Of a stretch of 64,000 bases of DNA, positions 7,032-57,766 are shown piece after piece. The stretch covers positions 62,001 through 126,000 of the forward strand of contig CACLJX010000002.1 in NCBI GenBank assembly GCA_902607435.1. Reading direction: 5' to 3'. A program made the position numbers and the translations under genes. Under the pieces are notes generated by a model. It was not told the DNA's origin. It did no database searches and saw nothing but the letters and a program-made list of their open reading frames with translations. This DNA comes from an uncultured Alphaproteobacteria bacterium (GTDB taxonomy: Bacteria; Pseudomonadota; Alphaproteobacteria; HIMB59; GCA-002718135). Position 1 is the first letter of the stretch, and each line of letters starts with the position of its first letter.

Positions 7032-7073
7032 GTGCCCGTAGCTCAGTAGGATAGAGCACCAGATTCCTAATCT
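7032..7073 (+). repeat. 5'-half copy of tRNA-Arg(CCU): left attachment site of island A
   Basis: These 42 nt are identical to bases 1-42 of the intact tRNA-Arg at 19959-20035. They run from the acceptor strand (GTGCCCG) through the D-arm and the anticodon loop (TTCCTAA) to the end of that match (TCT), then diverge completely. The remaining 3' half is absent, so no tRNA can form. The arrangement suggests an element that recombined within the tRNA and supplied a new 5' half at its right end, leaving the old 5' half here. Confidence 0.88.
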
Positions 7074-7608: not shown

Positions 7609-7655
7609 AACGTCTCTCCTTATTATTAGTTTCAATTTTTTTCATTATATTATTG

Positions 7656-7683
7656 TCCTACCACCAACCACGAGGAATGTTGA
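7656..7683 (-). repeat. 28-bp island repeat, copy 1
   Basis: An exact copy of the repeat with core CCACCAACCACGAGG. It lies 48 nt upstream of the cupin start (minus strand). Confidence 0.9.
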
Positions 7684-7712: not shown

Positions 7713-8099
7713 TTAACCTGTATTACATTTAGCAGTAATTTTATTGCCATCAAGATCACGTACATAACCATAATAATTTCCATCAGCTCTTATTCCTGGA
7801 GACCCTTCATCAACAGCCCCATTTTCTATAGCAGTTGCATGAAATTTATCTACTGCTTCTTTTGTTTCAGCTAACAAAGCAATCATTGTACCATTACCAA
7901 TTGTAGCAGGTTTTTTATTATAAGGTTTTGTTATATAGAACTTAACTTCATGAGGTTCATTTGCATGACCATAACCGACATATTTTTCTGTAGTGGTAAT
8001 CTTTTTTATTCCAAGATGAACAAAAATAGCATCATAAAATTTAATTGATTTTTCAAGGTCATTAGTTCCAACCATAACAAAACTAATAATTTTATTCAT
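7713..8099 (-). CDS. VOC-family (glyoxalase/dioxygenase-like) protein
   Basis: A 128-residue single-module VOC protein: the N-terminal strand-helix MVGTNDLEKSIKFYDAIF, a central glutamate/histidine region (GHANEPHEVKFYIT) and the closing GYVRDLDGNKITAKC. These are widespread small metalloenzymes or binding proteins of unclear substrate. The start codon is 7 nt from a 28-bp island repeat, whose GGTAGGA end is spaced to act as its ribosome site. Confidence 0.82.
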   Translation of the reverse strand: MNKIISFVMVGTNDLEKSIKFYDAIFVHLGIKKITTTEKYVGYGHANEPHEVKFYITKPYNKKPATIGNGTMIALLAETKEAVDKFHATAIENGAVDEGSPGIRADGNYYGYVRDLDGNKITAKCNTG

Positions 8100-8106
8100 A
8101 AGTTTA

Positions 8107-8134
8107 TCCTACCACCAACCACGAGGAATGTTGA
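8107..8134 (-). repeat. 28-bp island repeat, copy 2
   Basis: An exact copy, 7 nt upstream of the VOC gene start on the minus strand. It also forms the first part of the longer direct repeat 8107-8312. Confidence 0.9.
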
Positions 8135-8312
8135 GTTTAAATCTTTAAAACTAACACAGTAATCCTATAGTAAGAATATTTCCCACAGTAAACTTACAGG
8201 CTTTCTCCTCGATGATTGCTTAAAGTTGTGATAAAATCAATTAACGGTGGTGCCATGGTGGTACCAAAAAATTTTAGAGTTTTAGTAGAGTTTTAGCGAG
8301 CTTTGAAAAATT
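8107..8312. repeat. Long direct repeat, left copy
   Basis: About 165 nt (8107-8270) are nearly identical to 19749-19910, including the shared stretch AGTAAGAATATTTCCCACAG and the KpnI-like GGTACC motif. Weaker similarity continues to about 8312, ending in AGCGAGCTTTGAAAAA against AGCAAGCTTGAAAAAG. In the right copy the tRNA-Arg follows directly; here there is no tRNA. This looks like a relic of an earlier boundary of the element. Confidence 0.85.
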
Positions 8313-8354: not shown

Positions 8355-9668
8355 TTAAGTTATTCTTTTATAAATTCTACCAAGATAAATAAATAATGAT
8401 AAAGCTCTTGCTATCAAAAAGATACTAAGTGATATCCATAAGCCTAAATTACCAAAATTACTGATTAGGTATAAGGCACTTAGAATATAGATGCATACAG
8501 AAATGATCATGGCATTTCGCAACTCTTTTGTTTGAGAAGCTCCGACAAAAATTCCATCAAATTGATAGCAAAATGAGGAAATAAAGGGAATAATGACGAC
8601 CCAATAGGAGTAGGATAAACTAATTGTTTTTATATTTGGAAGATCAGTCATTAAAGAAATGAAATAATTTTTACCAAAGAAATATAATAGAGAAATTAAC
8701 AAACCTGTAGAGGCACTTAACATAAAGGAATTCTTAATAACATCCCTTAGTAATGTAATATTTTTTGATCCTATTGAATAGCCAACAATACCTTCTGTTG
8801 AAAAGGCATAAGCATCAAGAATAAAGGCAGATAAAAAAACAAGATTAATTAAAATAGTATTGGCAGCAACAACATCTTCACTAATAGTATTTCCCAAATA
8901 GGTAAAAAATAAGAAAGAGAAAGTTAGAAGAACTGTTCTGATAAAGATATTGAAGTTAATATTAAATATATTTTTAATTTTTTTAACATTAAAAATTTTT
9001 TTAATATCAAAATTTATATTTGTTAATTTTTTTAATTCAGAGAAAGTATAAATTAAAAATATAAAAGAAGTTAGGGTTGATGAGACTAACGTGCCTAGCG
9101 CAACGCCTGTTACATTCAAATTGAAATATAAAACAAAAAATAGACTAAAAATTATATTTGTAACAGCAAAGAAGCCAACGACTACACTTGACGTTTTCGT
9201 TTTTTGCAAGCCAATAAATAATCCTGTTATGACAAAAATGGTTAATTCGCCTAAAGATGAATAAATTCTTATATCAAAATAATCTTTAAAATATTTTTCT
9301 GTGTCATTTGATAAATCAAAGATTTGTAAACCCAAATTAAAAATAAAGTGCTGAAGAAAAATTAAAAGTAATGATATGACAATTACAAAAGTAATATTCC
9401 TAATAACTAAATCTACTATTTCATTATATTGGTTTGATCCATGGGCTTTTGCCACCATTCCTACTGTTCCCATTCGCAAAAATCCAAAACTCCAAAAAAT
9501 CATGGAAAATAAACTGGAAGCAATGCTTGTTGCAGTGAGATAGCTTGCATCATCTAGATTGCCCATTAACCCTGTATCAACAATAGCAACTAAAGGTATG
9601 GCAAGATTAGCAAAAAAAATTGGTATCGATAAATGTAAAAGATTTGTAATTGATGACTTAGAGGACAT
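8355..9668 (-). CDS. MATE-family efflux transporter, DinF-like
   Basis: 437 residues with about 12 hydrophobic segments. The N-terminal block SIPIFFANLAIPLVAIVDTG and the later LRMGTVGMVAKAHGS match MATE transporters of the DinF branch, which export cationic or toxic compounds using sodium or proton gradients across the inner membrane. A degenerate 28-bp repeat lies about 58 nt upstream of the start. The length is normal for the family and the frame is intact. The cargo is not known. Confidence 0.88.
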   Translation of the reverse strand: MSSKSSITNLLHLSIPIFFANLAIPLVAIVDTGLMGNLDDASYLTATSIASSLFSMIFWSFGFLRMGTVGMVAKAHGSNQYNEIVDLVIRNITFVIVISLLLIFLQHFIFNLGLQIFDLSNDTEKYFKDYFDIRIYSSLGELTIFVITGLFIGLQKTKTSSVVVGFFAVTNIIFSLFFVLYFNLNVTGVALGTLVSSTLTSFIFLIYTFSELKKLTNINFDIKKIFNVKKIKNIFNINFNIFIRTVLLTFSFLFFTYLGNTISEDVVAANTILINLVFLSAFILDAYAFSTEGIVGYSIGSKNITLLRDVIKNSFMLSASTGLLISLLYFFGKNYFISLMTDLPNIKTISLSYSYWVVIIPFISSFCYQFDGIFVGASQTKELRNAMIISVCIYILSALYLISNFGNLGLWISLSIFLIARALSLFIYLGRIYKRIT

Positions 9669-9726
9669 ATGAAATTATTAGTAATTAGAGAAACTCTAAT
9701 TTATTTCATCTCTTTATACTATGATT

Positions 9727-12113: not shown

Positions 12114-13067
12114 TTAATTCGGTAAAGGTGTTAAATTTTTTGTAACTGATTCTTTTGATTTTCCTTTTCTGACTTCATCAAAATATACGATGGTTGTCGG
12201 AACATTAATTGGCTCATAGTAATCTTTGCATTTATCATAAAGTTGTATTGAAATTTTATGTCTGATTTTTTTTTGTCTTAAATCATACATAGCTCCATAC
12301 TCTTCTGTAGTGCCATTATTTTCATCCAAACATTTTTGGATATGTGATTTATTTTTATAGTTTAAATATCTAGTTATGCCGGTACGATAAATTCCAAATT
12401 TTTGATAAACATACTCTTCTGTTTTTGTAGGACCTTCATAATCATATTTCAGTTCATCATTTACCCACACTTTAAAAAACCCATTGTCTTTTTTTGTCCA
12501 TTTGACATTAATTAAAATATCAAACCAATTGCCCGGCATCTTTTTTTTATGAATCAATTTTCTTTCATCATAGTCTATATCTCCTATGGTTCTTACAACT
12601 GTATAACCATTTCTTAATTCCTTAAACATAAATACCGGGGGTCCTCCTTTTTGATGAAACTGTCCATAATTATTACTTAGTGGATAGAGGTTTTGATGAT
12701 CTTCTGGAAAATAGACAGACCAAGCAAACCAATACTCTCCTTTAGACATCGCATCACCTGTTTTCCATGCTGCTACTTCGTGGCGTTCTCGATCATTTTT
12801 GCAGTCACTCCAACCACCTTCTTCATCTTCTCCACAGTCACCCGATCTGACCTCAAATCTTATGGATTGTTCTCCTACTCTCACAGGATGCCCATCCTTT
12901 TTATTAACAACTTGCATTCCATGATCTTTGAAATATTTACCAGTTAAACTTTTAATTATTTTTTTATATCCAGAAGCTGTATCTTTGGGCAGTTTAACAA
13001 TTTCTTCAGCATAAGAGATGTTACAGAAAGATATAAGTAGAACTAAAATTACTAATATTCTTTTCAT
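12114..13067 (-). CDS. Secreted polysaccharide lyase-like protein
   Basis: 317 residues with a signal peptide (MKRILVILVLLISFCNISYA). The core has EQSIRFEVRSGDCGED and NDRERHEVAAW, then the beta-sandwich stretches EYWFAWSVYFPEDH and MPGNWFDILINVKW. These are typical of the heparin-lyase-like polysaccharide lyase fold. It probably cleaves an acidic glycan outside the cell; the glycan is unknown. The start at 13067 is preferred over 13121, because the longer frame reads through the 28-bp repeat and the shorter one begins with the signal peptide. Confidence 0.8.
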   Translation of the reverse strand: MKRILVILVLLISFCNISYAEEIVKLPKDTASGYKKIIKSLTGKYFKDHGMQVVNKKDGHPVRVGEQSIRFEVRSGDCGEDEEGGWSDCKNDRERHEVAAWKTGDAMSKGEYWFAWSVYFPEDHQNLYPLSNNYGQFHQKGGPPVFMFKELRNGYTVVRTIGDIDYDERKLIHKKKMPGNWFDILINVKWTKKDNGFFKVWVNDELKYDYEGPTKTEEYVYQKFGIYRTGITRYLNYKNKSHIQKCLDENNGTTEEYGAMYDLRQKKIRHKISIQLYDKCKDYYEPINVPTTIVYFDEVRKGKSKESVTKNLTPLPN

Positions 13068-13075
13068 CCCGATTA

Positions 13076-13103
13076 CCCTACCACCAACCACTAGGAATGT
13101 TGA
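13076..13103 (-). repeat. 28-bp island repeat, copy 6
   Basis: Two substitutions against the consensus (CCACTAGG core and CCCTA start). It lies 8 nt upstream of the lyase start, where its GGTAGGG end can act as a Shine-Dalgarno sequence. Confidence 0.9.
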
Positions 13104-13137
13104 GAGTAAAGTAATAATCAAATAATATTGTATTTAA

Positions 13138-19353: not shown

Positions 19354-19740
19354 TTATATGATCTTTTCAAAATTCTTAACACATCGATATCTAATTTTAT
19401 GAAAATAGCTATCCGAATAAATAATGGTTAATCTTCCCGTATGTCTTGAAAATTGATAATCCCAACCTACACTTTTAAATGAAATAAAATAATCATCTAC
19501 TTTGTAAATTTTTTCTTCAACATAAGAAGAACTTGATTCAATTTCCCACATTTGAATTATTTTATTTTTTATATCTATATTTAAAATCATATCTCTTTCA
19601 TGCGGCTCCAATGCAAATTCAGTATCACTTCCTCTAAACCATTTCCATTGCCATTCTCCTTCACAATAAAATTGTGATATCTTTGCATCAACAAATTTTG
19701 GTAAGAAAACTAAGACAATAAATAAAAAGAGTTTTTTCAT
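19354..19740 (-). CDS. Short exported protein of unknown function
   Basis: 128 residues starting at 19740, where an N-terminal signal peptide (MKKLFLFIVLVFLPKFVDA) begins; the upstream ATG at 19764 lies inside the repeat. The mature part is about 109 residues, beta-rich, with two cysteines (QFYCEGEW and YRCVKN) that could form a disulfide. Another short exported two-cysteine protein is encoded at 26495-26893, but the two are not clearly homologous. The 28-bp repeat end supplies the probable ribosome site. Confidence 0.65.
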   Translation of the reverse strand: MKKLFLFIVLVFLPKFVDAKISQFYCEGEWQWKWFRGSDTEFALEPHERDMILNIDIKNKIIQMWEIESSSSYVEEKIYKVDDYFISFKSVGWDYQFSRHTGRLTIIYSDSYFHKIRYRCVKNFEKII

Positions 19741-19748
19741 CACGATTA

Positions 19749-19776
19749 TCCTACCACCAACCACGAGGAATGTTGA
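19749..19776 (-). repeat. 28-bp island repeat, copy 9
   Basis: An exact copy, 8 nt upstream of the short exported protein. It begins the right copy of the long direct repeat. Confidence 0.9.
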
Positions 19777-19943
19777 GTTTAAATCTTTAAAACTAACACA
19801 GTAGTCCTATAGTAAGAATATTTCCCACAGTAAACTTACAGGCTTTCTCCTCGAAGATTGTCTGAAGTTATGTTAAAATCAATTAATGGTGGTACCAGAG
19901 TGGTACCAGAAACTTTTTAAAGTTTAAGCAAGCTTGAAAAAGG
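19749..19943. repeat. Long direct repeat, right copy, next to tRNA-Arg
   Basis: Nearly identical to 8107-8270 over about 162 nt, with weaker similarity to the end. It leads into the intact tRNA-Arg and probably includes its promoter. Confidence 0.85.
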
Positions 19944-19958
19944 TAGAGAAACAAAGGA

Positions 19959-20035
19959 GTGCCCGTAGCTCAGTAGGATAGAGCACCAGATTCCTAATCT
20001 GGGGGTCGTGAGTTCGAATCTCGCCGGGCACGCCA
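19959..20035 (+). tRNA. tRNA-Arg (anticodon CCU)
   Basis: 77 nt with encoded CCA. The acceptor stem is GTGCCCG / CGGGCAC with discriminator G. The anticodon stem is CCAGA / TCTGG around loop TTCCTAA, giving anticodon CCT (reads AGG). The T-arm is GTGAGTTCGAATCTCGC. This gene is the integration target of both islands: its 5' half is copied at 7032-7073 and its 3' end is mimicked at 23990-24011. Confidence 0.95.
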
Positions 20036-20088
20036 ATTTCCTTAAATATTCCTTTAATGGCCGCACTCCTTCCGCAAAGGAGATACAG

Positions 20089-20304
20089 ATGGCTACTATA
20101 AGAAGACGTAATCGTAATTATAAGTGGGAAGCCCAAGTAAGAGTTACAGGATACAAAAAAATTTATAAATCATTTAAGTACAAGGAACATGCAAAAAAAT
20201 GGGCAAAAGAAATAGAAAGAAAAATTGAGAAAGGAATTTATCAAGAAACAGGTGACTTAGGCATTATTAAACTGGGTGATTTATTAAAAAGATATTTAAA
20301 TTAG
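20089..20304 (+). pseudogene. Tyrosine integrase, N-terminal remnant
   Basis: 71 residues after a good ribosome site (AAAGGAG): MATIRRRNRNYKWEAQVRVT, then KSFKYKEHAKKWAKEIERK. This is the arm-binding N-terminal domain of phage and genomic-island tyrosine integrases. The core-binding and catalytic domains (with the R-H-R-Y residues) are missing; the frame stops at 20304. Its place 53 nt downstream of the tRNA 3' end is the classic position for an island integrase. Confidence 0.85.
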
Positions 20305-20338
20305 GTCAGTCCTAATAAAAAAAGTTACCCCAAAGATT

Positions 20339-20391
20339 AAGAGGGTTATTTTAAGATTAACACATAGTTTTTTTGTGGTATGTAAATATTA
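20339..20391 (+). repeat. Island B dispersed repeat, copy 1
   Basis: Related to 21607-21668 and 22305-22357. The shared pattern is AAGAG-GGTTATTTT, then TTAACACATAG, then a T-rich stretch ending ATGTAAAT. It lies immediately before the acyltransferase fragment. Confidence 0.6.
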
Positions 20392-20392
20392 G

Positions 20393-20551
20393 ATGAAATT
20401 TACATATCGCCCAGAAATAGATGGTTTAAGAGCAATTGCTGTTGGTGCTGTTATTCTCTATCACGCTCAAATAACCATTTTAGGTCATCAACCTTTTAAA
20501 GGTGCTTTTTTAAGATGGGCATATTGGAAAACTACATTAATATTGTTATGA
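20393..20551 (+). pseudogene. Acyltransferase-3 (OafA-like) N-terminal remnant
   Basis: The 52-codon frame begins MKFTYRPEIDGLRAIAVGAV and continues ILYHAQITILGHQPFKG. This is the first membrane segment of acyltransferase-3 proteins, including the active-site histidine region. Similarity ends sharply near 20512, where unrelated sequence follows. The rest of the roughly 600-residue enzyme is missing. Confidence 0.82.
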
Positions 20552-21312
20552 ATTTTATAGATTTGAACAATTCTTATATTTATTTAAATCCAAATGAAAA
20601 TAATTGTTGGCGAGTTGCGATTAAGTCAATCTTATTAGATGTAAAAGAAAACACTTACTATTATCTCACAAAAGAATGTAGAGCAGAACTAGTAGGCGTT
20701 AAACCATTTGACCATCCAGCAAAATCAGAATTATGTGTAGTAGTAGATAGTAACAATAATAGGTGGAACATAAGAGATATACCAGTTTTCAAATTTAATG
20801 AATTTGGTTCCCATTATTATAAATTTAGAAAAGATGCCAAAGATGAAATTTTAATTAAAAACTGTGATTATAAAATTATTGATTTTAATAATATAAATAA
20901 AAGATTAAAACAAAGAAATTTAGAAAGTTTATATACAAAATTTTCTTATGAGTATCAAAATAAAGAATTTATCATTTTTAACAAAGCAGAATACTTAAAT
21001 TTTGATGGTAAAAAAAATAAAGAAAGAGAATATCTACAAACAATTTATGGTTATGTACCTTTTTTAAAAGATAATAAAATATTTATAAGTTATGTAGTCA
21101 GATATTTAGAAAAAGATAAACAAGGTGATTTAGAATTTAGATTACGAACTAATCAAAAAATAAACAGGTACTTGCCCCTTTCAAATAATTTTATTAAAAG
21201 AATAATTAAAAAAATTTTATTTTTTTCTTCTCCACTTATAAAAATTTCAGAATTTTATGAAAAAATAAATATAGATAAATCTAAAATAGAATTTTATGAA
21301 AAAATAAATTAA
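20548..21312 (+). CDS. Hypothetical protein, possibly the front part of a broken endonuclease gene
   Basis: 254 residues from the ATG at 20548 (a start at 20515 is possible but overlaps the acyltransferase remnant). It is lysine- and asparagine-rich, with no recognised domain. The segment CRAELVGVKPFDHPAKSELC and short GIY-like repeats look globular. It ends in a near-duplicate KISEFYEKIN / KIEFYEKIN, then meets in another frame a PD-(D/E)XK-like endonuclease tail at 21311. A frameshift in one larger gene is likely, but an independent protein cannot be excluded. Confidence 0.5.
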   Translation: MNFIDLNNSYIYLNPNENNCWRVAIKSILLDVKENTYYYLTKECRAELVGVKPFDHPAKSELCVVVDSNNNRWNIRDIPVFKFNEFGSHYYKFRKDAKDEILIKNCDYKIIDFNNINKRLKQRNLESLYTKFSYEYQNKEFIIFNKAEYLNFDGKKNKEREYLQTIYGYVPFLKDNKIFISYVVRYLEKDKQGDLEFRLRTNQKINRYLPLSNNFIKRIIKKILFFSSPLIKISEFYEKINIDKSKIEFYEKIN

Positions 21313-21601
21313 ATTTATTTCAGAATGGCAAAAACATAGCTGTATAATTAATACTCGACCAGCACGTTTTGATTTTTATTTACCCTTACGTAAAATATTA
21401 ATTGAATTTGATGGTATACAGCATTTTAAACCAGTACAATTCGGTGGGATGAGCTTGAAGAAGTCTAAAGAAGAATATTTAGAAACAAAAAGAAGAGATA
21501 AACTAAAAAATTTATGGGCAAAAAAAAATAATTATGAATTAATACGGATAAAATATGATGCCGATTACTTAAAAATACTTTCAAATAAAATTTTAAGTTA
21601 A
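21311..21601 (+). pseudogene. Endonuclease C-terminal fragment (DUF559/Vsr-like fold)
   Basis: A 96-residue open frame without a start codon. It carries RFDFYLPLRKILIEFDGIQH, a PD-(D/E)XK-like core with a D...E-x-D-G-x-Q-H arrangement, followed by a helix RRDKLKNLWAKKNNYELIRI that closes this fold. The pattern is common in phage-borne and Vsr-like endonucleases. It overlaps the end of the 20548 frame by 2 nt in a different frame, so the two may be halves of one gene broken by a frameshift near 21300. Confidence 0.7.
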
Positions 21602-21606
21602 AGGTT

Positions 21607-21668
21607 AAGAGAGTTATTTTTTTTCATTGTTTAACTCATGGTTTTATTGAAGGATATTATGTAAATTA
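21607..21668 (+). repeat. Island B dispersed repeat, copy 2
   Basis: Shares AAGAGAGTTATTTT, TTTAACTCATGG and TTATGTAAATTATA with the copies at 20339 and 22305. It follows the endonuclease fragment and leads into the hairpin at 21670. Confidence 0.6.
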
Positions 21669-21669
21669 T

Positions 21670-21695
21670 AATAGCGGAATTAAATATCCGCTATT
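21670..21695. terminator. Hairpin, probable bidirectional terminator
   Basis: Perfect 9-bp stem AATAGCGGA / TCCGCTATT with an 8-nt loop, between convergent reading frames. Confidence 0.65.
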
Positions 21696-21781
21696 ATCTT
21701 ATAATAATATTTATTTTGTAATTTTTATTAATAGTGTTTTTCGTAAGTAATTTTTACAAGTTACTTAAATGTAGATGGCGT

Positions 21782-22186
21782 CTATTTCTTCTCCCAAAGT
21801 TCCCATGTTGCTTTTCCTGCAGCATCAACATCCCAGTCATAAACTACACATTTGCCGTTGAGACTCGATAACGATGGAGCTGAGGTTTGAAAATAACATG
21901 CTCCTCTAAAGTTTATACCACCTTCTGCATTAAATTTACCAATGCCTGTTGCTGTGAATGTTGCCACTCCATCTGCAGTCATGACGACACCTCGATTAGG
22001 GCACTCTCCATAAAGGGTGCCATCTGCTCTCATATCAGAAGCATAAGCTACTATTACTTGAACTTCAGCTCCTGCTAAAGTTCCACTTCCTTCAGCTCTT
22101 GTCTCAAATCTAGGTAGAGCACCATTTCCAGGTAGGGGTGTATTTGTAGCAGTTGCTGTTAACGAACCAATCTTTTCTCCTAACAT
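21782..22186 (-). CDS. Hypothetical beta-rich protein
   Basis: 134 residues after a clear ribosome site (AAGGAGAAG). The sequence is glycine-, alanine- and threonine-rich with regular alternation (GSLTATATNTPLPGNG, GVATFTATGIGKFNAEGG), suggesting a small beta-barrel or lipocalin-like fold of about eight strands. Three cysteines are present (YGECPN, GACYFQ, GKCVVYD). There is no signal peptide. Its composition is much less AT-biased than its neighbours, which supports acquisition by transfer. No function is assigned. Confidence 0.65.
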   Translation of the reverse strand: MLGEKIGSLTATATNTPLPGNGALPRFETRAEGSGTLAGAEVQVIVAYASDMRADGTLYGECPNRGVVMTADGVATFTATGIGKFNAEGGINFRGACYFQTSAPSLSSLNGKCVVYDWDVDAAGKATWELWEKK

Positions 22187-22304
22187 ATCTTCTCCTTCTT
22201 TTAAAAAATTTCTATTAAGTACAATTTCAAGACTTTAACAATGAATTGTATTGCTGGACCTATAACAATCACAACCAAAAATATAGCTAAAACTTTTATT
22301 TTTT

Positions 22305-22357
22305 AAGAAGGTTATTTTTAGGTTAACACATGGGCTTATTGGAAATATTGAAATTTT
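22305..22357 (+). repeat. Island B dispersed repeat, copy 3
   Basis: Shares AAGAAGGTTATTTTTAGG and TTAACACATGGG with copy 1. It lies just upstream of the glyoxalase-like gene start. Confidence 0.6.
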
Positions 22358-22383
22358 AAACTGAATCAGTTTAAATGTACTTT

Positions 22384-23019
22384 ATGAACTCTCGTATAGA
22401 CCATATTGTAATTGGCGCTGCCAATCTTATTTCAGGAACAAAAACTTTAGAAACTAAACTTAGCACTAAATTTTCTCCCGGTGGAGAACATATGATTATG
22501 GGAACACATAACAAGCTTTTAAAATTGCAATCAAATATTTATCTTGAGGTAATTGCCAATAATCCTAATGTTAGCAAACCATCTCGTCAAAGATGGTTCT
22601 CATTAGATGAATCTAGTATTAAAGAAAAAATTCAGAAGTCACCTAGGCTTTTATGTTGGGTACTTGAAGTTGACAATATTGAAGATACTGCAAAAAAATG
22701 TGGCTACAATCCAGGTGAGATACTCCAATTATCACGTGATGAATTAACATGGAAAGTAACAGTCCCATCTAATGGTAAATTAGTAGAGAATGGTGTTTTA
22801 CCAGTTTTAATTGAGTGGCCAAGCAATAAACATCCTTCAAAAAAACTTAATAATAGTAAAGTGTCAATAAATAAGATTTCCCTTTTTCATCCAGAGCCTA
22901 ATAAAATAAAAAACATTATCTCTAATTTAATTGAATCAGATTTAATACACGTCTCAAAAGGTTTTCCAAAAATGGAATTAATTTTAACAACTCAAAATGA
23001 AAAAGTTGTTATTAATTAA
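22384..23019 (+). CDS. Glyoxalase-like domain protein (Glyoxalase_3 type)
   Basis: About 211 residues. MNSRIDHIVIGAANLISGTK at the start is the pattern of Glyoxalase_3 proteins, followed by GGEHMIMGTHNKLLKL and YLEVIANNP. These are VOC-fold proteins with unknown substrates. An in-frame ATG at 22375 is also possible; 22384 is preferred because the domain begins there. It is followed after 20 nt by the membrane hydroxylase gene, and the two are probably cotranscribed. Confidence 0.78.
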   Translation: MNSRIDHIVIGAANLISGTKTLETKLSTKFSPGGEHMIMGTHNKLLKLQSNIYLEVIANNPNVSKPSRQRWFSLDESSIKEKIQKSPRLLCWVLEVDNIEDTAKKCGYNPGEILQLSRDELTWKVTVPSNGKLVENGVLPVLIEWPSNKHPSKKLNNSKVSINKISLFHPEPNKIKNIISNLIESDLIHVSKGFPKMELILTTQNEKVVIN

Positions 23020-23039
23020 TAATGTTATAAGACGTAAGA

Positions 23040-23990
23040 ATGGATGAGTTCAAAAAGCAAGAATGGAATTATAATCCTAAAACTCCAATTGAAAATAATC
23101 CACTATTTTCATTTCCTTTCATACCTAAAAAAATTATTAAATGGTATGCAGATATGTGGGCCTCATTTTCTGAAACGGTTTTTTGCTTAATTGTTTCAAT
23201 TATATATCTTTCATTACTTCCACCTATAGTGATTTTTAATAATCTTAACTTTAATACGATTTTAACAATCTACTTATTTAATATAACAATTATGTTAGTT
23301 GTTGCAGGAGGTTTACATTTATTTTTTTACACTCTAAGAAAACAAGATGCTAAACTTAAATATGATTCTAGAAGAGTTACGAACAGTAAAAAATTTACAT
23401 TTAATAAACAAGTTCTTGATAATATGTTTTGGAGCCTTGCAAGCGGTGTTACAATTTGGACGTTTTATCAAATCTTGCTTTTATGGAGTTATTCCAATGG
23501 TCTGATTTCTAAAATAAGTTTTGGTGTTAATCCATTCTTATTTTTAACTCTATTTCTTTTAATAATATTATTTGAATCAATACATTTTTATTTTGCTCAT
23601 CGATTACTTCATTTTCAATTCTTCTATAAATTTTTTCATCATATTCATCATAGAAATATAAATCCAGGACCATGGTCAGGGATATCTATGCATCCTTTTG
23701 AACATTTACTTTATTTTAGTACTGTTTTGATACATTTTTTTATTCCATCCCACCCTATACATATTTTGTTTCATTTTATGATTATAACTATAGGAGCCGT
23801 TATTGGACATTGCGGATTTGATGGTTTTTTAATAAACAAAAAAAATAAAATAGCTTTAGGTCATTTCCATCATCAACTTCATCATCGTTATTTTGAATGT
23901 AATTATGGCACAACTGAAACACCAATTGATGTGTGGTTCAATTCTTTCCATGATGGAACTTTTGATACTAATAAAAAGTTGAAAAACTAA
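23040..23990 (+). CDS. Sterol desaturase / fatty acid hydroxylase family membrane protein
   Basis: 316 residues with several membrane segments and the di-iron histidine clusters of the family: HFYFAHRLLH near residue 182, HHIHHRN near 200, and GHFHHQLHHRYF near 282. Such integral-membrane di-iron enzymes hydroxylate or desaturate lipids, sterols or carotenoids. The C-terminal cluster is followed by NYGTTETPIDVWF, typical of bacterial members. It lies at the right end of island B; the tRNA-end copy overlaps its stop region. The substrate is unknown. Confidence 0.87.
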   Translation: MDEFKKQEWNYNPKTPIENNPLFSFPFIPKKIIKWYADMWASFSETVFCLIVSIIYLSLLPPIVIFNNLNFNTILTIYLFNITIMLVVAGGLHLFFYTLRKQDAKLKYDSRRVTNSKKFTFNKQVLDNMFWSLASGVTIWTFYQILLLWSYSNGLISKISFGVNPFLFLTLFLLIILFESIHFYFAHRLLHFQFFYKFFHHIHHRNINPGPWSGISMHPFEHLLYFSTVLIHFFIPSHPIHILFHFMIITIGAVIGHCGFDGFLINKKNKIALGHFHHQLHHRYFECNYGTTETPIDVWFNSFHDGTFDTNKKLKN

Positions 23991-24011
23991 GACTCAAATC
24001 TCTCCGGGCAC
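23990..24011 (+). repeat. Degenerate tRNA-Arg 3' end: right attachment site of island B
   Basis: CTCAAATCTCTCCGGGCAC matches the tRNA T-arm and acceptor end TTCGAATCTCGCCGGGCAC (20013-20031) at 16 of 19 positions, in the same orientation. With the intact tRNA and the integrase remnant at the left, it brackets a segment of about 4 kb. Confidence 0.75.
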
Positions 24012-24034
24012 TTCATTGAATAAAGAATGGTTTT

Positions 24035-24373
24035 TTACAAATTAGTTTTTCCTAGAAGATTTACTAAAATTACTCCAATAATTATTAAAATTAGTCCAAT
24101 AAAAGCATAAAAATTTGGCCATTGATTAAATCTTAAAATTCCTAAAACTGTTGTTGCAATAATGCATAATCCTGCAAAAGTTGCATATGTGTATCCTGCT
24201 GAAATAGTTTTCATAACTTGAGATAAGCAATACATACACAAAACTATTGTTAAGGCACTCATCAAAGACGGAATAATTTTTGAGAACCCTTCAGCTTCTT
24301 TTGCTAATATATTTGATGCCGTGCCAAATGCAACTGCTGCAAGTAGAAATGTATAAGTAAGAAAAATGCTCAT
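24035..24373 (-). CDS. Small multidrug resistance-like transporter (EmrE/SMR superfamily)
   Basis: 112 residues with four hydrophobic helices. The start at 24373 is chosen because the upstream ATG at 24388 lies inside a terminator hairpin. The pattern AGYTYATFAGLCIIATTVLG matches the third helix region of SMR proteins; however the N-terminal glutamate used by EmrE for proton coupling is not at its standard place (TFLLAAVAFGTASNILAKEAEG). It could be a quaternary-ammonium exporter or a related EamA-type half protein. Confidence 0.7.
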   Translation of the reverse strand: MSIFLTYTFLLAAVAFGTASNILAKEAEGFSKIIPSLMSALTIVLCMYCLSQVMKTISAGYTYATFAGLCIIATTVLGILRFNQWPNFYAFIGLILIIIGVILVNLLGKTNL

Positions 24374-24380
24374 ATGTTTA

Positions 24381-24401
24381 AAGGGCACTTTAAGTGCCCT
24401 T
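24381..24401 (-). terminator. Terminator hairpin
   Basis: Stem AAGGGCAC / GTGCCCTT with a 5-nt loop, between the gene at 24413 and the SMR-like gene. Confidence 0.65.
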
Positions 24402-24412
24402 GTTATTAAAAT

Positions 24413-24829
24413 CTAAAGATAAATCTTATCTGATAATCCCCATATAAGTATTGCCGATGATACAACCATAAATACAGAAAGACCTAGATCAGTTAAGCTG
24501 TTTTTAGCTTCGAGATCCTTATCTATTAACTTAAAATAAAATAAAGATTCATATAAAAGTTGAGCAGCTGAAATAATAAAAATCAAGTTATAATACACCC
24601 ATGTTCCTTCAGGACCGCCTGGTCTAAAGATAATATAAATTCCTATTAAGAAGAAACCAAATGCAAAGGTTCCGATAAACCTGACAAGATAGATAGCACT
24701 CCTGTCTACGTTAAATTCTTTTACTAGACCTTCGGGCGCAAAATATATTCTAACAAGATAAACACCAAACAATCCAGTAACTAAAATGTGAATGATTAGA
24801 TAAAAAATATTACCAAAATTTTCAATCAT
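24413..24829 (-). CDS. Four-helix membrane protein of unknown function
   Basis: 138 residues with about four transmembrane helices (LIIHILVTGLFGVYLVRIYF, then FIGTFAFGFFLIGIYIIF). No family is recognised with certainty. It follows the small alpha/beta protein at 24849 with 19 nt between them. The same pairing, a small ferredoxin-like protein and a four-helix membrane protein, repeats at 25200-25959, suggesting a duplicated two-gene unit. Confidence 0.65.
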   Translation of the reverse strand: MIENFGNIFYLIIHILVTGLFGVYLVRIYFAPEGLVKEFNVDRSAIYLVRFIGTFAFGFFLIGIYIIFRPGGPEGTWVYYNLIFIISAAQLLYESLFYFKLIDKDLEAKNSLTDLGLSVFMVVSSAILIWGLSDKIYL

Positions 24830-24848
24830 AAGTACTCCTTTCAGTAAT

Positions 24849-25145
24849 TTATAATTCCACTGAGCTCAATTCCCACACTTGAACACTTTCAACACATTCA
24901 TCGAAAATGGGTTTTGCTATCGGATTATTACCTGAAGCAAATTCTTTCAAACCTTCTTCGTTATGGACGGAGATTTTAAACATCACATAACTTTTATCTG
25001 GCGCAATCGCGGGAACTGTTTTTTCAACATGAGCAACACTTTTTCTTATGCCCATTCCTTCATCAGACTGCATCCATCCCATGAATTTTTCAAATATTCC
25101 ATCTCCCGATTTAAATTTTAACAGTGCGATCATTTCTTTTTCCAT
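24849..25145 (-). CDS. Small alpha/beta-barrel (dabb/ABM-like) protein
   Basis: 98 residues after the ribosome site AAGGACAG. The pattern MIALLKFKSGDGIFEKFMGW, then YVMFKISVHNEEGLKEFASG, resembles dimeric alpha-beta barrel proteins such as antibiotic-biosynthesis monooxygenases and DUF families of stress proteins. No catalytic residues are evident. It pairs with the membrane protein at 24413. The role is unknown. Confidence 0.6.
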   Translation of the reverse strand: MEKEMIALLKFKSGDGIFEKFMGWMQSDEGMGIRKSVAHVEKTVPAIAPDKSYVMFKISVHNEEGLKEFASGNNPIAKPIFDECVESVQVWELSSVEL

Positions 25146-25199
25146 AATTCTGTCCTTTCCTTATAAGAATTTATTTTATATCAGTTATTAACCTAATCT

Positions 25200-25625
25200 T
25201 TAATCAAATTTTTCTGAATACAATCTTGGTATTCCTATTGCAACAAGACAAAGAACAATAAACCAAATTGAAATAAATAAGAAAAGTTGAGAAAGATATT
25301 CTAATGGAGGTCCTGCTGTAAAACCTAGAAAAAATGCAACAAAGGTAACGCAAACTGCAACAAAGTTAACACCAACTACCCAATAACCGCCAACTTTTTT
25401 CTTTTTAAAAAGTAAGTATATGCCATACAACACAAGAATAATTTGAATAACACTTACAAATAGACCGAAGGTATCTGGTTCGATGTTTATATCTCCTAAA
25501 GGTATTGACCCTTTAAAGTAACCAATTACTTCTCGGCTAAATGTATCGTAAGTATCCCACAACAATGCAATAATCATGATCCAAAATACAAACGGGAATG
25601 CACGTGCTTTAAAACCTGTATCCAT
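25200..25625 (-). CDS. Four-helix membrane protein of unknown function
   Basis: 141 residues with four hydrophobic helices and a basic loop (KKKKVGGYW). Not recognised. It resembles the protein at 24413 in length and topology, though identity is not obvious. It is preceded by the ribosome site AAAGGAGAT and follows the ABM-like gene at 25672 by about 46 nt on the same strand. Confidence 0.65.
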   Translation of the reverse strand: MDTGFKARAFPFVFWIMIIALLWDTYDTFSREVIGYFKGSIPLGDINIEPDTFGLFVSVIQIILVLYGIYLLFKKKKVGGYWVVGVNFVAVCVTFVAFFLGFTAGPPLEYLSQLFLFISIWFIVLCLVAIGIPRLYSEKFD

Positions 25626-25671
25626 TAAAATATCTCCTTTTATTAATTATTTAATTTAGTATTCAAGCTAT

Positions 25672-25959
25672 TTACACTTTTGAATGATTCAATTCAACTG
25701 TTCCAACTTTCATATCTACAGAAGCAAAATGGTCTTTATTAGAATCCATACTTTGCGTTCTAGCAGCTGTAGCCCTCTCCATTGCTTCATTATTTTCATA
25801 CAAGGATATGGCAATGATAGTTGTATCATCCACTCTAATTTGTAAAAGTTGTTCTGCTTCAGGAAATTTACCTGGGGCAGTTGCAGTATAGGATTGAACA
25901 ATCTTATCTGCTCCTTCTTTTGATTTTAAATTTAGTGTAGTAATTCTTGCTACTGACAT
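25672..25959 (-). CDS. Small ABM-like alpha/beta protein
   Basis: 95 residues with ribosome site TTTAGGAG. The layout MSVARITTLNLKSKEGADKI, then EQLLQIRVDDTTIIAISLYE, and a helix NEAMERATAARTQ fits a dimeric alpha-beta barrel domain. No enzyme function can be given. It is the first gene of a minus-strand group reaching to 24035. Confidence 0.62.
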   Translation of the reverse strand: MSVARITTLNLKSKEGADKIVQSYTATAPGKFPEAEQLLQIRVDDTTIIAISLYENNEAMERATAARTQSMDSNKDHFASVDMKVGTVELNHSKV

Positions 25960-26288
25960 AAAAACTCCTAAATAAAAATATTGTTTTATTAATGATATAA
26001 CTTGAAACTTTGATTACAACCAAAAATTAACTAAGTAAGATAATCTGAAAACGAGGTTATAATTTTAACTATTTAATAATATCCGCAAAGATACATTCCT
26101 TTGGTAAGTAGGGACGAAATTGTAATAATTAAAACGGTGAGAATAATTATGAAAAAAGAACTTCGCCCCTGTGCTAGGTGTTAATTATTAAATTAGGCAG
26201 GTTCGTGGTTAAATTAAGGTAATATTTTGTCTATACTAAATTTAGATATACGTGTTAGAAGGCTGAGGATATGTTGAAGTTATAATTT
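25960..26288. other. Intergenic region without a clear gene
   Basis: 329 nt between divergent genes, so it must hold both promoters. A 12-codon frame at 26149-26184 (MKKELRPCARC) is noted; there is no evidence that it is translated. Nothing else is recognised. Confidence 0.5.
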
Positions 26289-26498
26289 ATGGATAGTAAA
26301 TTAAAAAATTTAATAGCTATAGTCAATTTACTAGCTAAGATTGTTCTACTTATTTCTTTATTTTATTTTATTTTTTTTACAAAAACTTCTGCTATTGATT
26401 TTTTAACTTCACCTCTGATTCTTGCTAGTTTGCTTATTGCTCTTTGTCTGTCTTTAATTCTAAAGTGGGTAAAAAGTGGTGATAAAAAGAAGCTATGA
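26289..26498 (+). CDS. Short two-helix membrane protein
   Basis: 69 residues with two hydrophobic segments (VNLLAKIVLLISLFYFIFF and SPLILASLLIALCLSLIL) and a basic tail (KWVKSGDKKKL). It overlaps the next gene by 4 nt (ATGA), which supports translation. No family is recognised. Confidence 0.6.
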   Translation: MDSKLKNLIAIVNLLAKIVLLISLFYFIFFTKTSAIDFLTSPLILASLLIALCLSLILKWVKSGDKKKL

Positions 26499-26893
26499 GA
26501 AGTTTAGCCCTGGTCTTTGCCACAGCTTCTTTTTTTTTGTCATATATAATTAATGCAGCTGAGAATTTTCTTCTTTTAGGTAAAATAAAGTGTGAATTAT
26601 CTGCAACTTTTATTATCTTTGATTTTGATAATAATATTGCTATTCGAAATAATTATAATTCTTCTCAATACAAATTATCTAACTTTGAAACAAAAAAGAA
26701 TAAATTTAGAAAAAACATTTACACTTTTTCTTGGTATGATTTGAAGAATAATTTTTTAGGGTATTGGGCTATCTCGGATGATTTGAAGAACATTAAAGAA
26801 ATTAAATTTGATAGAGAAGGGAAAATTTATTCTGTAAGCAGGAAATGCTCGAAATTTAATAATAATAATATTGGTGAATTGGTGTGGAAATAA
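26495..26893 (+). CDS. Short exported protein of unknown function
   Basis: 132 residues with a signal peptide (MRSLALVFATASFFLSYIIN, cut after AENF or nearby). The mature part is beta-rich with cysteines in KIKCELSA and SRKCSKF, consistent with one disulfide. It is translationally coupled to the small membrane protein before it. No family is recognised. Confidence 0.6.
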   Translation: MRSLALVFATASFFLSYIINAAENFLLLGKIKCELSATFIIFDFDNNIAIRNNYNSSQYKLSNFETKKNKFRKNIYTFSWYDLKNNFLGYWAISDDLKNIKEIKFDREGKIYSVSRKCSKFNNNNIGELVWK

Positions 26894-27027
26894 ACACTAA
26901 TGTATTAAGTAGTTTATAAAGATAATTTGTATCTATCTATACAAAAAATTTATTAATCCAGAAAACATAAGCTTAAGCAATTAATAAAATAGTGGTATAA
27001 TAACTCTATCGATAAAAAGGAGGACTT

Positions 27028-27399
27028 ATGGATTTAAAACTTGTTTTCCGTATTGCCGCTGTAGTTGCAGCAATTAATGGATTGGGATTGCTTTTTATGG
27101 GGGGCACATTTTTTGCAATGGCTAACGTAACTCCTACACCAGATTTGATTACTGTTGGTCAATTTCTTGGAGTTACAATCTTATTTCTTGCTTTATTGGA
27201 ATGGCGAATACCTGATATAGCTGGTGATGCATTATCATCTTTGGGCCAGTTGTTTGGGATTGGTAATGTACTATGGTTTTTAATTGTTGGGTATCATATC
27301 ATGACAGGAAAAGCAGGGGGAGCTACTGGTTTTGTTAATGCAGGAATTTTTGTAATCCTTGCTGTACTGTTCTTTATGCAAAGCAGAAAGTCTGAATAA
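27028..27399 (+). CDS. Four-helix membrane protein (tandem paralogue 1)
   Basis: 123 residues after the ribosome site AAGGAGG. Four hydrophobic helices, with a central conserved block PDIAGDALSSLGQLFGIGNV. The next gene encodes a clear paralogue with the matching block ASIAGDAINSYGQLFAYIHS, so this is a tandem duplication. No known family is assigned; the shared IAGDA-x-x-S-x-GQLF motif is likely functional. Confidence 0.7.
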   Translation: MDLKLVFRIAAVVAAINGLGLLFMGGTFFAMANVTPTPDLITVGQFLGVTILFLALLEWRIPDIAGDALSSLGQLFGIGNVLWFLIVGYHIMTGKAGGATGFVNAGIFVILAVLFFMQSRKSE

Positions 27400-27421
27400 A
27401 TCTTAACTTTTAGGAGGTTTT

Positions 27422-27796
27422 ATGAATCTACAATTATTGTTAAAAGTTAATGGAGTAGTTTCTGGCATAAACGGTTTGTCAGCTATTCTTATGTATAATA
27501 TGTGGTTTAATATGGCAGGCATAGAAGCAACTGGTGCTAATATTTCACTTTGCCAATCATTGGGAGTTGCTGCTGTTGGTCTCGCAATTATATCTTTGAG
27601 AACAGCTAGTATTGCAGGTGATGCGATCAATTCATATGGGCAATTATTTGCATACATTCATAGTGGTTTTGCTGTAATTACTCTTTATCATGTGATGCAA
27701 GGCTATTTAGCAAATAATCAACCATTATATATTAATATAGTAATAAGTGTAATTTTAGCTGCTGCATTTTTTTATTACAGCAGAAAAACTGAATAA
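27422..27796 (+). CDS. Four-helix membrane protein (tandem paralogue 2)
   Basis: 124 residues, with ribosome site TAGGAGG and 22 nt after paralogue 1. It has the same topology, the IAGDAINSYGQLF motif and the same end (FYYSRKTE against FMQSRKSE). The copies have diverged in the first helix. A terminator-like hairpin follows at 27828. Confidence 0.7.
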   Translation: MNLQLLLKVNGVVSGINGLSAILMYNMWFNMAGIEATGANISLCQSLGVAAVGLAIISLRTASIAGDAINSYGQLFAYIHSGFAVITLYHVMQGYLANNQPLYINIVISVILAAAFFYYSRKTE

Positions 27797-27827
27797 CTAT
27801 TTATTGTAATGTTTTTCTTATATTTAT

Positions 27828-27847
27828 AGCGGGATTTATTTCCCGCT
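27828..27847. terminator. Hairpin, probable terminator
   Basis: 7-bp stem AGCGGGA / TCCCGCT with loop TTTATT, between the paralogue pair and the GFA-like gene. Confidence 0.6.
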
Positions 27848-27859
27848 TGTAAAATCTTC

Positions 27860-28258
27860 ATGAAAAAACAAGCAACTTCTAAAATAGCTCAATGTCTTTG
27901 TGGAAATATTAAGATAAAAGTAAACGGAAAACTCCGCCATGTTATTAATTGTCATTGTTCACAGTGTATGAAAACACATGGAAATTATGCAGCTTATACT
28001 TCCTGTCCTGAAGCAAATATTACTTTTGTTAATAAAAGAACTCTAAAATGGTATAAATCTTCTAATATTGCTAAAAGAGGTTTTTGTTCCACTTGTGGAG
28101 CGAGCATATTTTATAAATTACTGAAGAGTAGCAATATAAGTATTGCTGCTGGGATGTTCAGTAATCCAACAAAGTTGAAGACTTATTCTAACATTTTTAC
28201 AAAGGGTAAATTAGATTATTATAAACTGGATCCAAGACTACCTAAATACAATAAATAA
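27860..28258 (+). CDS. GFA family (CENP-V/GFA) zinc protein
   Basis: 132 residues with the zinc cysteines of the glutathione-dependent formaldehyde-activating-like fold: QCLCGNIKIKV, NCHCSQCMKTHG and GFCSTCGASIFYK. GFA proteins bind two zinc ions; despite the name, the enzymatic role of most members is doubtful. The frame is complete and of normal length. It is probably a single-gene unit. Confidence 0.85.
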   Translation: MKKQATSKIAQCLCGNIKIKVNGKLRHVINCHCSQCMKTHGNYAAYTSCPEANITFVNKRTLKWYKSSNIAKRGFCSTCGASIFYKLLKSSNISIAAGMFSNPTKLKTYSNIFTKGKLDYYKLDPRLPKYNK

Positions 28259-28371
28259 ATAATTTAAATAATTATTATTTATTCATCTAAAAAAAAGATA
28301 TCTTTAAATTTTCTAGGAATGTATTTAAAATTAATTCCATATTTTTTCACAAGAAATGGTAGAATAATACT

Positions 28372-28815
28372 ATGACAAAACTTCCAAATTTTAAACTTAA
28401 ATTAATTAATGGTAAAGAAATAAAATCTTCTGAAATAAAAAAAACAATTTTATTTTTTTATCCGAAAGCTTTTACAAGTGGATGTACAATAGAAGTTTGT
28501 GATTTCCAATCATATTTTAATAAATTTAAAAAGATAGGTTTTCAGCTTATTGGTGTTTCAAAAGATTCCACAGATAAAAATTTTAAATTTGCACAAAAGT
28601 ACAAAGTACAATATTCTTTGGCTTCAGATATAACTAATGTTTGTGAAAAACTTGGTGTTTGGATTGAGAAATCAATGTATGGCAGAAAATATTTTGGCAT
28701 AAATCGCACTACTTTTATTATTGATAGCCAAGGAAAAATATTTAAACATTGGAATAAAGTAAAAGTTTCTGGACATGTTAAAGAAGTGTTGGAAATAGCA
28801 AAGCTGTGCCCATAA
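28372..28815 (+). CDS. bcp: Thioredoxin-dependent thiol peroxidase, BCP/peroxiredoxin Q type
   Basis: 147 residues. The peroxidatic cysteine is in FYPKAFTSGCTIEVCDFQ; the second cysteine four positions after it is the BCP-type resolving cysteine. The later KYFGINRTTFIIDSQGKI is typical for the family. The enzyme reduces hydroperoxides using thioredoxin. The length fits. Confidence 0.9.
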   Translation: MTKLPNFKLKLINGKEIKSSEIKKTILFFYPKAFTSGCTIEVCDFQSYFNKFKKIGFQLIGVSKDSTDKNFKFAQKYKVQYSLASDITNVCEKLGVWIEKSMYGRKYFGINRTTFIIDSQGKIFKHWNKVKVSGHVKEVLEIAKLCP

Positions 28816-28958
28816 TTTTTTAATTGTAACTATTAAATTAATATAATGAAAATATTTTTCAAATATTAATTTTCTATTTATCCCAATCTTTTACTACTCT
28901 AGCTAATGTGAAATTTAGTGATTTTAAATTTTGTGAACAGGACAATATAAAAAATTAT

Positions 28959-29429
28959 TTATGCAACCCTATTAGTAATTTTTAAATCTTCTTCTTTTTC
29001 AGGAATTACATAAGCTTTAGCACAATGTTTTAAACAGTATGGTTTATCTTCAAATCGTTCTTCTTCACAAAAATGAAAATCATTTTCATCTGGGTGTCCT
29101 TCAGGCCATTCACACCCTCTTTTTAATTTGGGTGAAAAAAAATTTTTTGATGTTGGCTGAAAAGTTCCATTGTTATACACATTTTCTTTTTGTTCAGTTA
29201 GTTTGTTTTCAAAATGTAGTGTTGGCATAATAGGAGAACGAGCTTTTTTTCTATCGGGCTTAATAGCAGTTCTTCTTATTGGAGATGGTCTTCTTTCAAG
29301 TCCAATACGATGTGCTTTTCCTACCACAGCATTTTTAGTAACTCCTAGTAATCTTCCTATCTGAGCTGTGGGTAGGCCGTTATCCCAAAATTTTTTTAAC
29401 TGGGCAACATTATCATCATTCCAAGGCAT
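28959..29429 (-). CDS. gcrA: GcrA cell cycle regulator
   Basis: 156 residues. The N-terminal helix-turn-helix MPWNDDNVAQLKKFWDNGLP, then GVTKNAVVGKAHRIGL, is the signature of GcrA. The C-terminal RNA-polymerase-binding part has the cysteine-rich CEWPEGHPDENDFHFC and PYCLKHCAKAY. GcrA works with CcrM methylation (GANTC) to control cell-cycle genes and is essentially limited to alphaproteobacteria, so it supports the taxonomic reading. It is divergent from pgk. Confidence 0.92.
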   Translation of the reverse strand: MPWNDDNVAQLKKFWDNGLPTAQIGRLLGVTKNAVVGKAHRIGLERRPSPIRRTAIKPDRKKARSPIMPTLHFENKLTEQKENVYNNGTFQPTSKNFFSPKLKRGCEWPEGHPDENDFHFCEEERFEDKPYCLKHCAKAYVIPEKEEDLKITNRVA

Positions 29430-53865: not shown

Positions 53866-53867
53866 CT

Positions 53868-54752: not shown

Positions 54753-54831
54753 AATATAATTCTATGCTTTGTCAGTTTCTTGTCAACTTATCATGTAATT
54801 ATAAAACAAGAGGTATATAAATTAATTTGCA

Positions 54832-57732: not shown

Positions 57733-57766
57733 ACTTACTAAAGTGATAAATAAGATTTAAATCTAA

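What the first reader, a model, noticed from the sequence alone, without database searches (positions are those of the whole stretch)
19959..24011. Second element (island B) on the 3' side of the same tRNA, with decayed integrase and attR
A tyrosine integrase N-terminus lies 53 nt after the tRNA, and a 16/19 match to the tRNA 3' end lies at 23990-24011. These bracket a 4-kb element. Two elements have therefore used one tRNA from opposite sides, making a composite hotspot. The broken integrase suggests the element is fixed or needs help in trans.
Basis: partly seen in the sequence, partly recalled or inferred. Interest (0 to 1): 0.7.

Follow-up and report, generated by a model that had tools for sequence, protein, structure and literature searches.

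The report
Decayed mobile island beside tRNA-Arg
A 4-kb stretch after a tRNA-Arg gene in a marine bacterium is probably the worn-out remains of a mobile DNA element that once inserted at that tRNA, at a spot where related bacteria keep stacking different foreign genes on both sides; this is a known kind of thing, and its main interest is how often such elements in this group have lost most of their integrase.

Summary
A 71-codon tyrosine-integrase N-terminus starts 53 nt after tRNA-Arg(CCU). A profile of intact relatives (about 315 residues) aligns to codons 1-80 with one in-frame TAG; the catalytic domain is gone. The tRNA-like end (23994-24011, 16/18) is suggestive, not proven: relatives of this integrase mostly leave 41-64-nt copies at 94-100%. 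In relative G130, homology resumes 35 nt past this end with no island B.

The hotspot is far larger than claimed. Core gene dusA lies 38 kb upstream of the tRNA and gcrA 8.9 kb downstream. In G003 they lie 0.2 and 1.2 kb from the tRNA. The 5' side carries a perfect 42-nt copy of the tRNA 5' half, so use from both sides is supported; both sides recur in relatives. Full-length integrases of the family sit beside tRNA-Gly, Leu, Gln, Phe, Val, Thr, Met and tmRNA, some with primase-helicase genes (satellite-like); none was found beside tRNA-Arg(CCU).

Integrase stubs recur as small cargo elements, with no C-terminal-only fragments, and one pair shares 98.7% identical cargo ending at the tRNA fragment although host flanks are 84% identical. 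Best reading: B is a decayed, non-autonomous member of a tRNA-integrating island family. New member of a known kind.

The parts
19959..20035 (+). tRNA-Arg(CCU), intact; the regenerated target gene
   Evidence: Rfam tRNA 68.9 bits
20036..20088 (+). 53-nt spacer between tRNA 3' end and integrase start, the position of the attachment-site arm in relatives (inferred)
   Evidence: relatives mostly have 56-101 nt here
20089..20334 (+). tyrosine integrase remnant: 71 codons, TAG at 20302-20304, about 8 more recognisable codons; catalytic domain missing
20333..20367 (+). copy 1 of a repeat shared with other islands (AAGATTAAGAGGGTTATTTTAAGATTAACACATAG), at the integrase break point
20393..20551 (+). 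5' stub of an acyltransferase-3 gene (52 codons)
   Evidence: Pfam Acyl_transf_3 E=0.0016; G017 has a stub 84% identical over about 134 nt
20515..21312 (+). ORF of 265 aa, no family
21308..21601 (+). 97-codon stretch in another frame, C-terminal part of a homing-endonuclease-like protein; probably a frameshifted gene
   Evidence: PHROG 559 E=9e-21, PHROG 9084 E=4e-18
21604..21645 (+). diverged copy 2 of the repeat
   Evidence: pairwise alignment
21782..22186 (-). ORF of 134 aa, no family
22302..22333 (+). copy 3 of the repeat, upstream of the glyoxalase-like gene; 95% over 40 nt to G014:C28 and G128:C30
22375..23019 (+). Glyoxalase_3-domain protein, 214 aa
   Evidence: Pfam E=3e-32; 75-80% DNA identity to G018, G117, G146
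23040..23990 (+). fatty-acid hydroxylase family protein, 316 aa
   Evidence: Pfam E=5e-19; 72% DNA identity to G002
23994..24011 (+). candidate attR: 16/18 match to tRNA positions 56-73
24035..24388 (-). SMR transporter, taken here as the DNA beyond the right end; DNA homology to G130 resumes at 24046
28959..29429 (-). gcrA homologue (name from sequence, own knowledge), first core gene on the 3' side of the hotspot
7032..7073 (+). perfect copy of tRNA positions 1-42: displaced 5' half left by a 5'-side element (island A)

Best explanation
Island B is the decayed remnant of a small genomic island that a tyrosine integrase inserted at the 3' part of tRNA-Arg(CCU). In the standard mechanism (inferred here from anatomy, not shown) the element carries a copy of the tRNA 3' end next to its integrase gene. 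Recombination inside the tRNA rebuilds an intact tRNA at the left end and pushes the host's own 3' end to the right end, here 23994-24011. The integrase later lost everything after about codon 82 and gained a stop at codon 72; the cargo is partly broken as well. The tRNA sits in a 47-kb hotspot between core genes dusA and gcrA that has received several such insertions on both sides. Intact relatives of the element, with a full integrase and in some cases primase-helicase genes, exist at other tRNA genes in the order. B cannot move by itself; whether a relative's integrase could still move it is unknown.
For: Integrase remnant next to the tRNA 3' end, homologous to full-length integrases that lie about 56-101 nt after tRNA-Gly, Leu, Gln, Phe, Val and Thr 3' ends and after tmRNA. 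Intact reference elements end in a 45-65-nt copy of the tRNA 3' part: G110 tRNA-Leu 9.5 kb, G116 tRNA-Gly 4.9 kb, G127 tRNA-Gln 5.6 kb, G096 tRNA-Thr 4.7 kb, G003:C31 tRNA-Gly 12.8 kb. Core synteny dusA - tRNA - gcrA in G003, and tRNA next to gcrA (under 50 nt) in G056, show the nearly empty site. G130 has tRNA, one gene, then the SMR gene with no island B; homology resumes at 24046. G018 has a 3'-side element at the same tRNA with a 46-nt end copy. Small islands with integrase stubs and exact 51-nt tRNA end copies are repeated in relatives.
Against: The right end is short and degenerate; relatives' ends are mostly 41-64 nt at 94-100%. Chance is not excluded (5/200 shuffles; about 0.13 expected by the looser measure). 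Relatives of this integrase on the 3' side mostly cross over near the anticodon (copies starting at positions 11-31), whereas this end would need either decay of that part or a T-loop crossover. The SMR gene beyond the end is itself part of the variable pool (also in the tRNA-Arg interval of G146), so G130 is not a perfect empty site. No congener is held.
Confidence: 0.68

Rival explanations
1. The integrase remnant is real, but the 24.0-kb match is chance. The 8.9 kb between tRNA and gcrA is then a patchwork of several insertions, deletions and homologous exchanges with no discrete element B ending at 24011.
For: Match significance is moderate. The interval shares genes with the same interval of G130 and G146 in different order. 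The integrase, an acyltransferase gene and an endonuclease-like gene are all broken.
Against: No equal-scoring match in 408 kb of related sequence on both strands; correct orientation; it lies 4 nt after the last cargo ORF and 35 nt before homology to G130 resumes.
Confidence: 0.25
2. A and B are one event: one large element that carries an internal tRNA, with the integrase remnant belonging to island A.
For: A and B adjoin the same tRNA, and copies of the B-type and A-type repeats occur together in G003:C2 and G008:C40.
Against: The two end copies are different halves of the tRNA (1-42 and 56-73). 5'-side and 3'-side elements occur separately at this tRNA (5' only in G056) and at other tRNAs.
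Confidence: 0.04
3. The short integrase ORF is kept because it works, for example as an arm-binding accessory protein or as part of the attachment site, so the element is a non-autonomous mobile unit rather than a merely decaying one.
For: Of the integrase-family hits in 150 genomes about ten are N-terminal stubs and none is a C-terminal-only fragment of a lost gene. In genus g6 the 76 nt before the stub are 91-99% identical between elements while the stub itself is 77-92%. G022 and G119 share 1,725 nt of cargo at 98.7%, ending at the tRNA copy, with host flanks at 84%.
Against: The window's stub carries an internal TAG before the break, stub lengths vary (53-122 codons), and some have other stops. 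Position next to the tRNA could explain retention without function. Seven of the stubs share one tRNA and genus.
Confidence: 0.1

Closest known systems
tRNA-gene genomic islands as defined in Islander (PMC4383910)
   Same: Regenerated tRNA at one end, displaced fragment in the same orientation at the other, integrase gene in the island. Both 3'-fragment (3,760) and 5'-fragment (159) islands, anticodon and T-stem sites, and tandem arrays are catalogued there.
   Different: B has no catalytic integrase domain and a very short, degenerate fragment, so the paper's integrase filter would reject it.
Additive flexible island fGI-2 of 'Ca. Methylopumilus' (PMC10872708)
   Same: Streamlined aquatic bacterium; variable island (330 bp-42 kb) preceded by recurring copies of the last 20 nt of a tRNA gene.
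   Different: tRNA-Lys rather than tRNA-Arg(CCU); the passages read do not name an integrase for fGI-2.
Tycheposons (Prochlorococcus; described second-hand in PMC10872708)
   Same: Cargo-bearing elements next to a tRNA with a tyrosine recombinase in streamlined marine bacteria.
   Different: No sequence relation was tested; B is at the small end of the 4-200 kb range and has no recombinase left.
Phage satellites and similar integrative elements with VapE-like or Prim-Pol replication genes (own knowledge)
   Same: Intact relatives in G110, G107 and G003 carry an integrase, a small HTH protein and a primase-helicase (DUF5906/VapE-like or Prim-Pol/AAA).
   Different: B has none of these genes; packaging was not tested and the integrase of G110 has no close match in IMG/VR.

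Membership tests
tRNA-gene genomic island | intact target tRNA at one end | tested here: met
   ARAGORN and Rfam
tRNA-gene genomic island | displaced fragment of the same tRNA, same orientation, at the other end | tested here: inconclusive
   16/18 at 23994-24011, moderate significance
tRNA-gene genomic island | tyrosine integrase gene with catalytic domain (PF00589) | tested here: not met
   only N-terminal positions 1-80 of 315 remain; PF00589 not found at this locus
tRNA-gene genomic island | element absent at the same site in relatives | tested here: met
   G130, G003, G056 lack B between tRNA and gcrA
tRNA integrase family of this order (defined here, alignment A1) | N-terminal domain of the family profile | tested here: met
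   profile hit E=1e-23 over 80 positions (the remnant itself is one of the ten rows); independent pairwise matches E=1e-10 to 1e-16
tRNA integrase family of this order (defined here, alignment A1) | position some 50-100 nt from a tRNA end | tested here: met
   53 nt here; mostly 56-101 nt in relatives
Tycheposon | tyrosine recombinase plus cargo beside a tRNA | tested here: not met
   recombinase broken
Tycheposon | sequence relation to Prochlorococcus elements | not tested
   no reference sequences were compared
Phage satellite | primase/replication genes | tested here: not met
   none in 20036-24011; present in intact relatives
Phage satellite | packaging by a helper phage | not testable with these tools
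   needs particles or experiments

The most novel reading that the evidence does not exclude
In this order of streamlined marine bacteria, islands that have lost most of their integrase but keep the attachment end and the first 50-120 codons of the integrase gene may be a standing class of non-autonomous elements, moved in trans by full-length family members. Repeated insertion stacks their cargo genes on both sides of tRNA genes, which then work like slow integrons. Island B would be one of them.
Probability: 0.2. Interest if true: 0.65.

Novelty: new member of a known kind. Interest (0 to 1): 0.4.

Why it matters
It locates a 47-kb gene-acquisition hotspot between dusA and gcrA in a small-genome marine alphaproteobacterium and links it to one integrase family that uses at least eight different tRNA or tmRNA genes in the order. 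If stub elements are moved in trans, this would help explain how genomes with very few mobile-element genes keep exchanging small gene cassettes.

Tried and rejected
(2) A full-length integrase beside tRNA-Arg(CCU): none in 150 genomes of the order. (3) Further tRNA ends between 24012 and gcrA: no match of score 24 or more. (4) Rfam for the repeats and the region: only the tRNA. (5) Integrase relatives among phages: one weak Klebsiella phage match, present in two records, and four weak IMG/VR matches; the G110 integrase has none in IMG/VR. The profile was too diverse for the pattern scan. (6) The idea that the stub sequence simply follows host phylogeny in genus g6 was rejected: stub identity does not follow the identity of the flanking host gene. 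(7) Base composition does not separate B: G+C 28.0% against 29.2% beyond it and 30.5% in core DNA. (8) A loose search for the leader motif gave nearly as many hits in reversed sequence (154) as in real sequence (211), so only the strict patterns count.
Full report
OBSERVATION. The window holds tRNA-Arg(CCU) at 19959-20035. An ORF of 71 codons begins 53 nt after it (20089-20301) and ends in TAG. Its translation matches the N-termini of full-length tyrosine integrases in related genomes. A profile made from nine of those proteins plus the remnant (A1) aligns to 20089-20334 as positions 1-80 of 315 with one internal TAG. Nothing convincing of the remaining residues is found downstream. So the integrase is broken twice: a nonsense codon at 72, and loss of everything after about codon 82.

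THE RIGHT END. 23994-24011 matches tRNA positions 56-73 at 16 of 18 bases. In dinucleotide shuffles of 20036-28958 the best score reaches this value in 5 of 200. In 408 kb of sequence from the same and related genomes, both strands, no match to the tRNA 3' part reaches it. With a fitted alignment to positions 48-77, 0.23% of 160-nt windows score as high; that pool contains other tRNA genes and is conservative. I treat this end as likely but unproven. It differs from the ends left by this integrase family elsewhere, which are mostly 41-64 nt long at 94-100%. The tRNA-Ser locus of the same genome does hold copies at 85-98%, so decayed copies exist there.

THE LOCUS. In G003 dusA ends 177 nt before the tRNA and gcrA starts 1.16 kb after it. 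In G056, of the sister family, gcrA lies within 50 nt of the tRNA. In the window genome dusA is at -19308..-18337 (contig sequence left of the window) and gcrA at 28962-29429. The variable region is therefore about 47 kb with the tRNA inside it. G018 and G130 keep the same core genes with other content between them. Gene names dusA, gcrA and pgk are my reading of the sequences. In G130 the order is tRNA, a phosphatidylcholine-synthase-like gene, SMR transporter, others, gcrA. The window's SMR gene matches G130's at 82% DNA identity from 24046 on, and B is absent there. This places an insertion between tRNA and SMR in the window lineage. But the SMR gene also lies in the tRNA-Arg interval of G146 at another distance, so it belongs to the variable pool and G130 is only a near-empty site.

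BOTH SIDES. A perfect copy of tRNA positions 1-42 lies at 7032-7073. At the same tRNA, G056 has a 5'-half copy and one gene between it and the tRNA. That gene is a polysaccharide-lyase-like protein 58% identical to the one at 12114-13121 in the window. G055 has a 64-nt 5' copy and an integrase stub on the 5' side. G018 has on its 5' side three tRNA fragments or copies with single genes between them, and on its 3' side a 46-nt copy followed by the same downstream sequence as the intact tRNA. Elsewhere, G107 (tRNA-Ser) has a full integrase and a 42-nt 5' copy, and G003:C2 (tRNA-Met) a full integrase and a 55-nt 5' copy. Islander counts 159 islands with a 5' fragment against 3,760 with a 3' fragment (PMC4383910), so 5'-side use is known but uncommon.

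INTACT RELATIVES. Full integrases of the family lie about 56-101 nt after tRNA-Gly, Leu, Gln, Phe, Val and Thr 3' ends and after tmRNA, with end copies 4.7 to 12.8 kb away where both ends are held. The intact elements of G110, G107 and G003:C31 carry small HTH proteins and a primase-helicase: DUF5906/VapE-like with a CHC2 zinc finger, or Prim-Pol with an AAA domain. That is the gene set of satellite-like integrative elements (own knowledge).

STUB ELEMENTS. Of the integrase-family matches in 150 genomes of the order, about ten are N-terminal stubs of 53-122 codons and none is a C-terminal-only piece of a lost gene. In genus g6 the tRNA-Gly locus carries stubs in seven genomes, followed by different cargo; in five of these an exact 51-nt tRNA copy ends the element 2.7-4.5 kb from the integrase start. 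Stub identity does not follow the identity of the flanking host gene. G022 and G119 share 1,725 nt of cargo at 98.7%, ending at the tRNA copy, while the host flank is 84% identical. This shows exchange of stub-element DNA between species. It does not by itself separate trans-acting integrase from homologous recombination. Island B fits this class in anatomy.

CARGO. B carries an acyltransferase 5' stub (a similar stub is in G017), a 265-aa ORF, a homing-endonuclease-like piece in another frame, a 134-aa ORF, a Glyoxalase_3 protein and a fatty-acid hydroxylase. Only the last two have recognisable families in an apparently complete gene. A repeat of about 30 nt occurs at the integrase break point, at about 21604 (diverged) and at 22302, and in islands of G014, G003, G008 and G128. 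Its role is unknown; in several places it lies between divergent genes.

WHAT IS SHOWN AND WHAT IS INFERRED. Shown: the broken integrase, its family, its place beside the tRNA, the hotspot limits, use of this tRNA from both sides in relatives. Likely: that 23994-24011 is the right end. Inferred from the known mechanism of tyrosine integrases at tRNA genes: how B was inserted. Unknown: whether B could be moved in trans.

HOST. The closest named records are alphaproteobacterial genomes (MarineAlpha5_Bin3, AG-915-C06). Placement in the marine order HIMB59 rests on my own knowledge of those names and on genome size and composition; it was not tested.

Noticed in passing
window 7652, 8103, 9713, 11143, 12078, 13072, 13463, 18200, 19745 (minus-strand genes): Nine copies of a 23-39-nt element (CTCAACATTCCTCGTGGTTGGTGGTAGGATAA), most of them just upstream of a minus-strand gene. 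A related form (CTTAACAATCTCCTCAGTTGGTGGTAGGATAAT) precedes cargo genes of tRNA-Gly islands in genus g6. The strict pattern occurs in few genomes, clustered, with no control hits; not in Rfam.
   Followed up: partly
window 7234-7683; G003:C2 (L119:10274-10726): A cupin gene plus this element is 95.8% identical over 453 nt to a gene in a tRNA-Met island of another genus; the identity ends at the end of the element.
   Followed up: partly
window 8366-9713; G001:C19 (L064, L196): A MATE transporter gene is 90.5% identical over 1,349 nt to a gene that lies about 20 nt after tRNA-Arg(ACG) in another genus.
   Followed up: partly
L128 (G000:C3, about 53,100-59,500): tRNA-Ser locus of the same genome: two full tRNA-Ser copies and four fragments in about 6.4 kb, mostly single genes between them, with an integrase stub at one end.
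   Followed up: partly
window 8085-8284 and 19727-19926: A 200-nt repeat, 87% identical, near the two ends of island A; it includes the region upstream of the tRNA.
   Followed up: no
L057 (G034:C6, about 49,530-49,649): A lone tRNA-Arg 5' half (positions 1-41, 100%) with its upstream region, 20 kb downstream of the intact tRNA of another sequence type.
   Followed up: partly
L159 and L158 (G120, G132, tRNA-Gly): A 0.6-kb one-gene unit bounded by tRNA-Gly fragments, 95% identical between two genomes, with a 2-kb unit inserted nearer the tRNA in one of them: order consistent with newest-next-to-tRNA stacking.
   Followed up: partly
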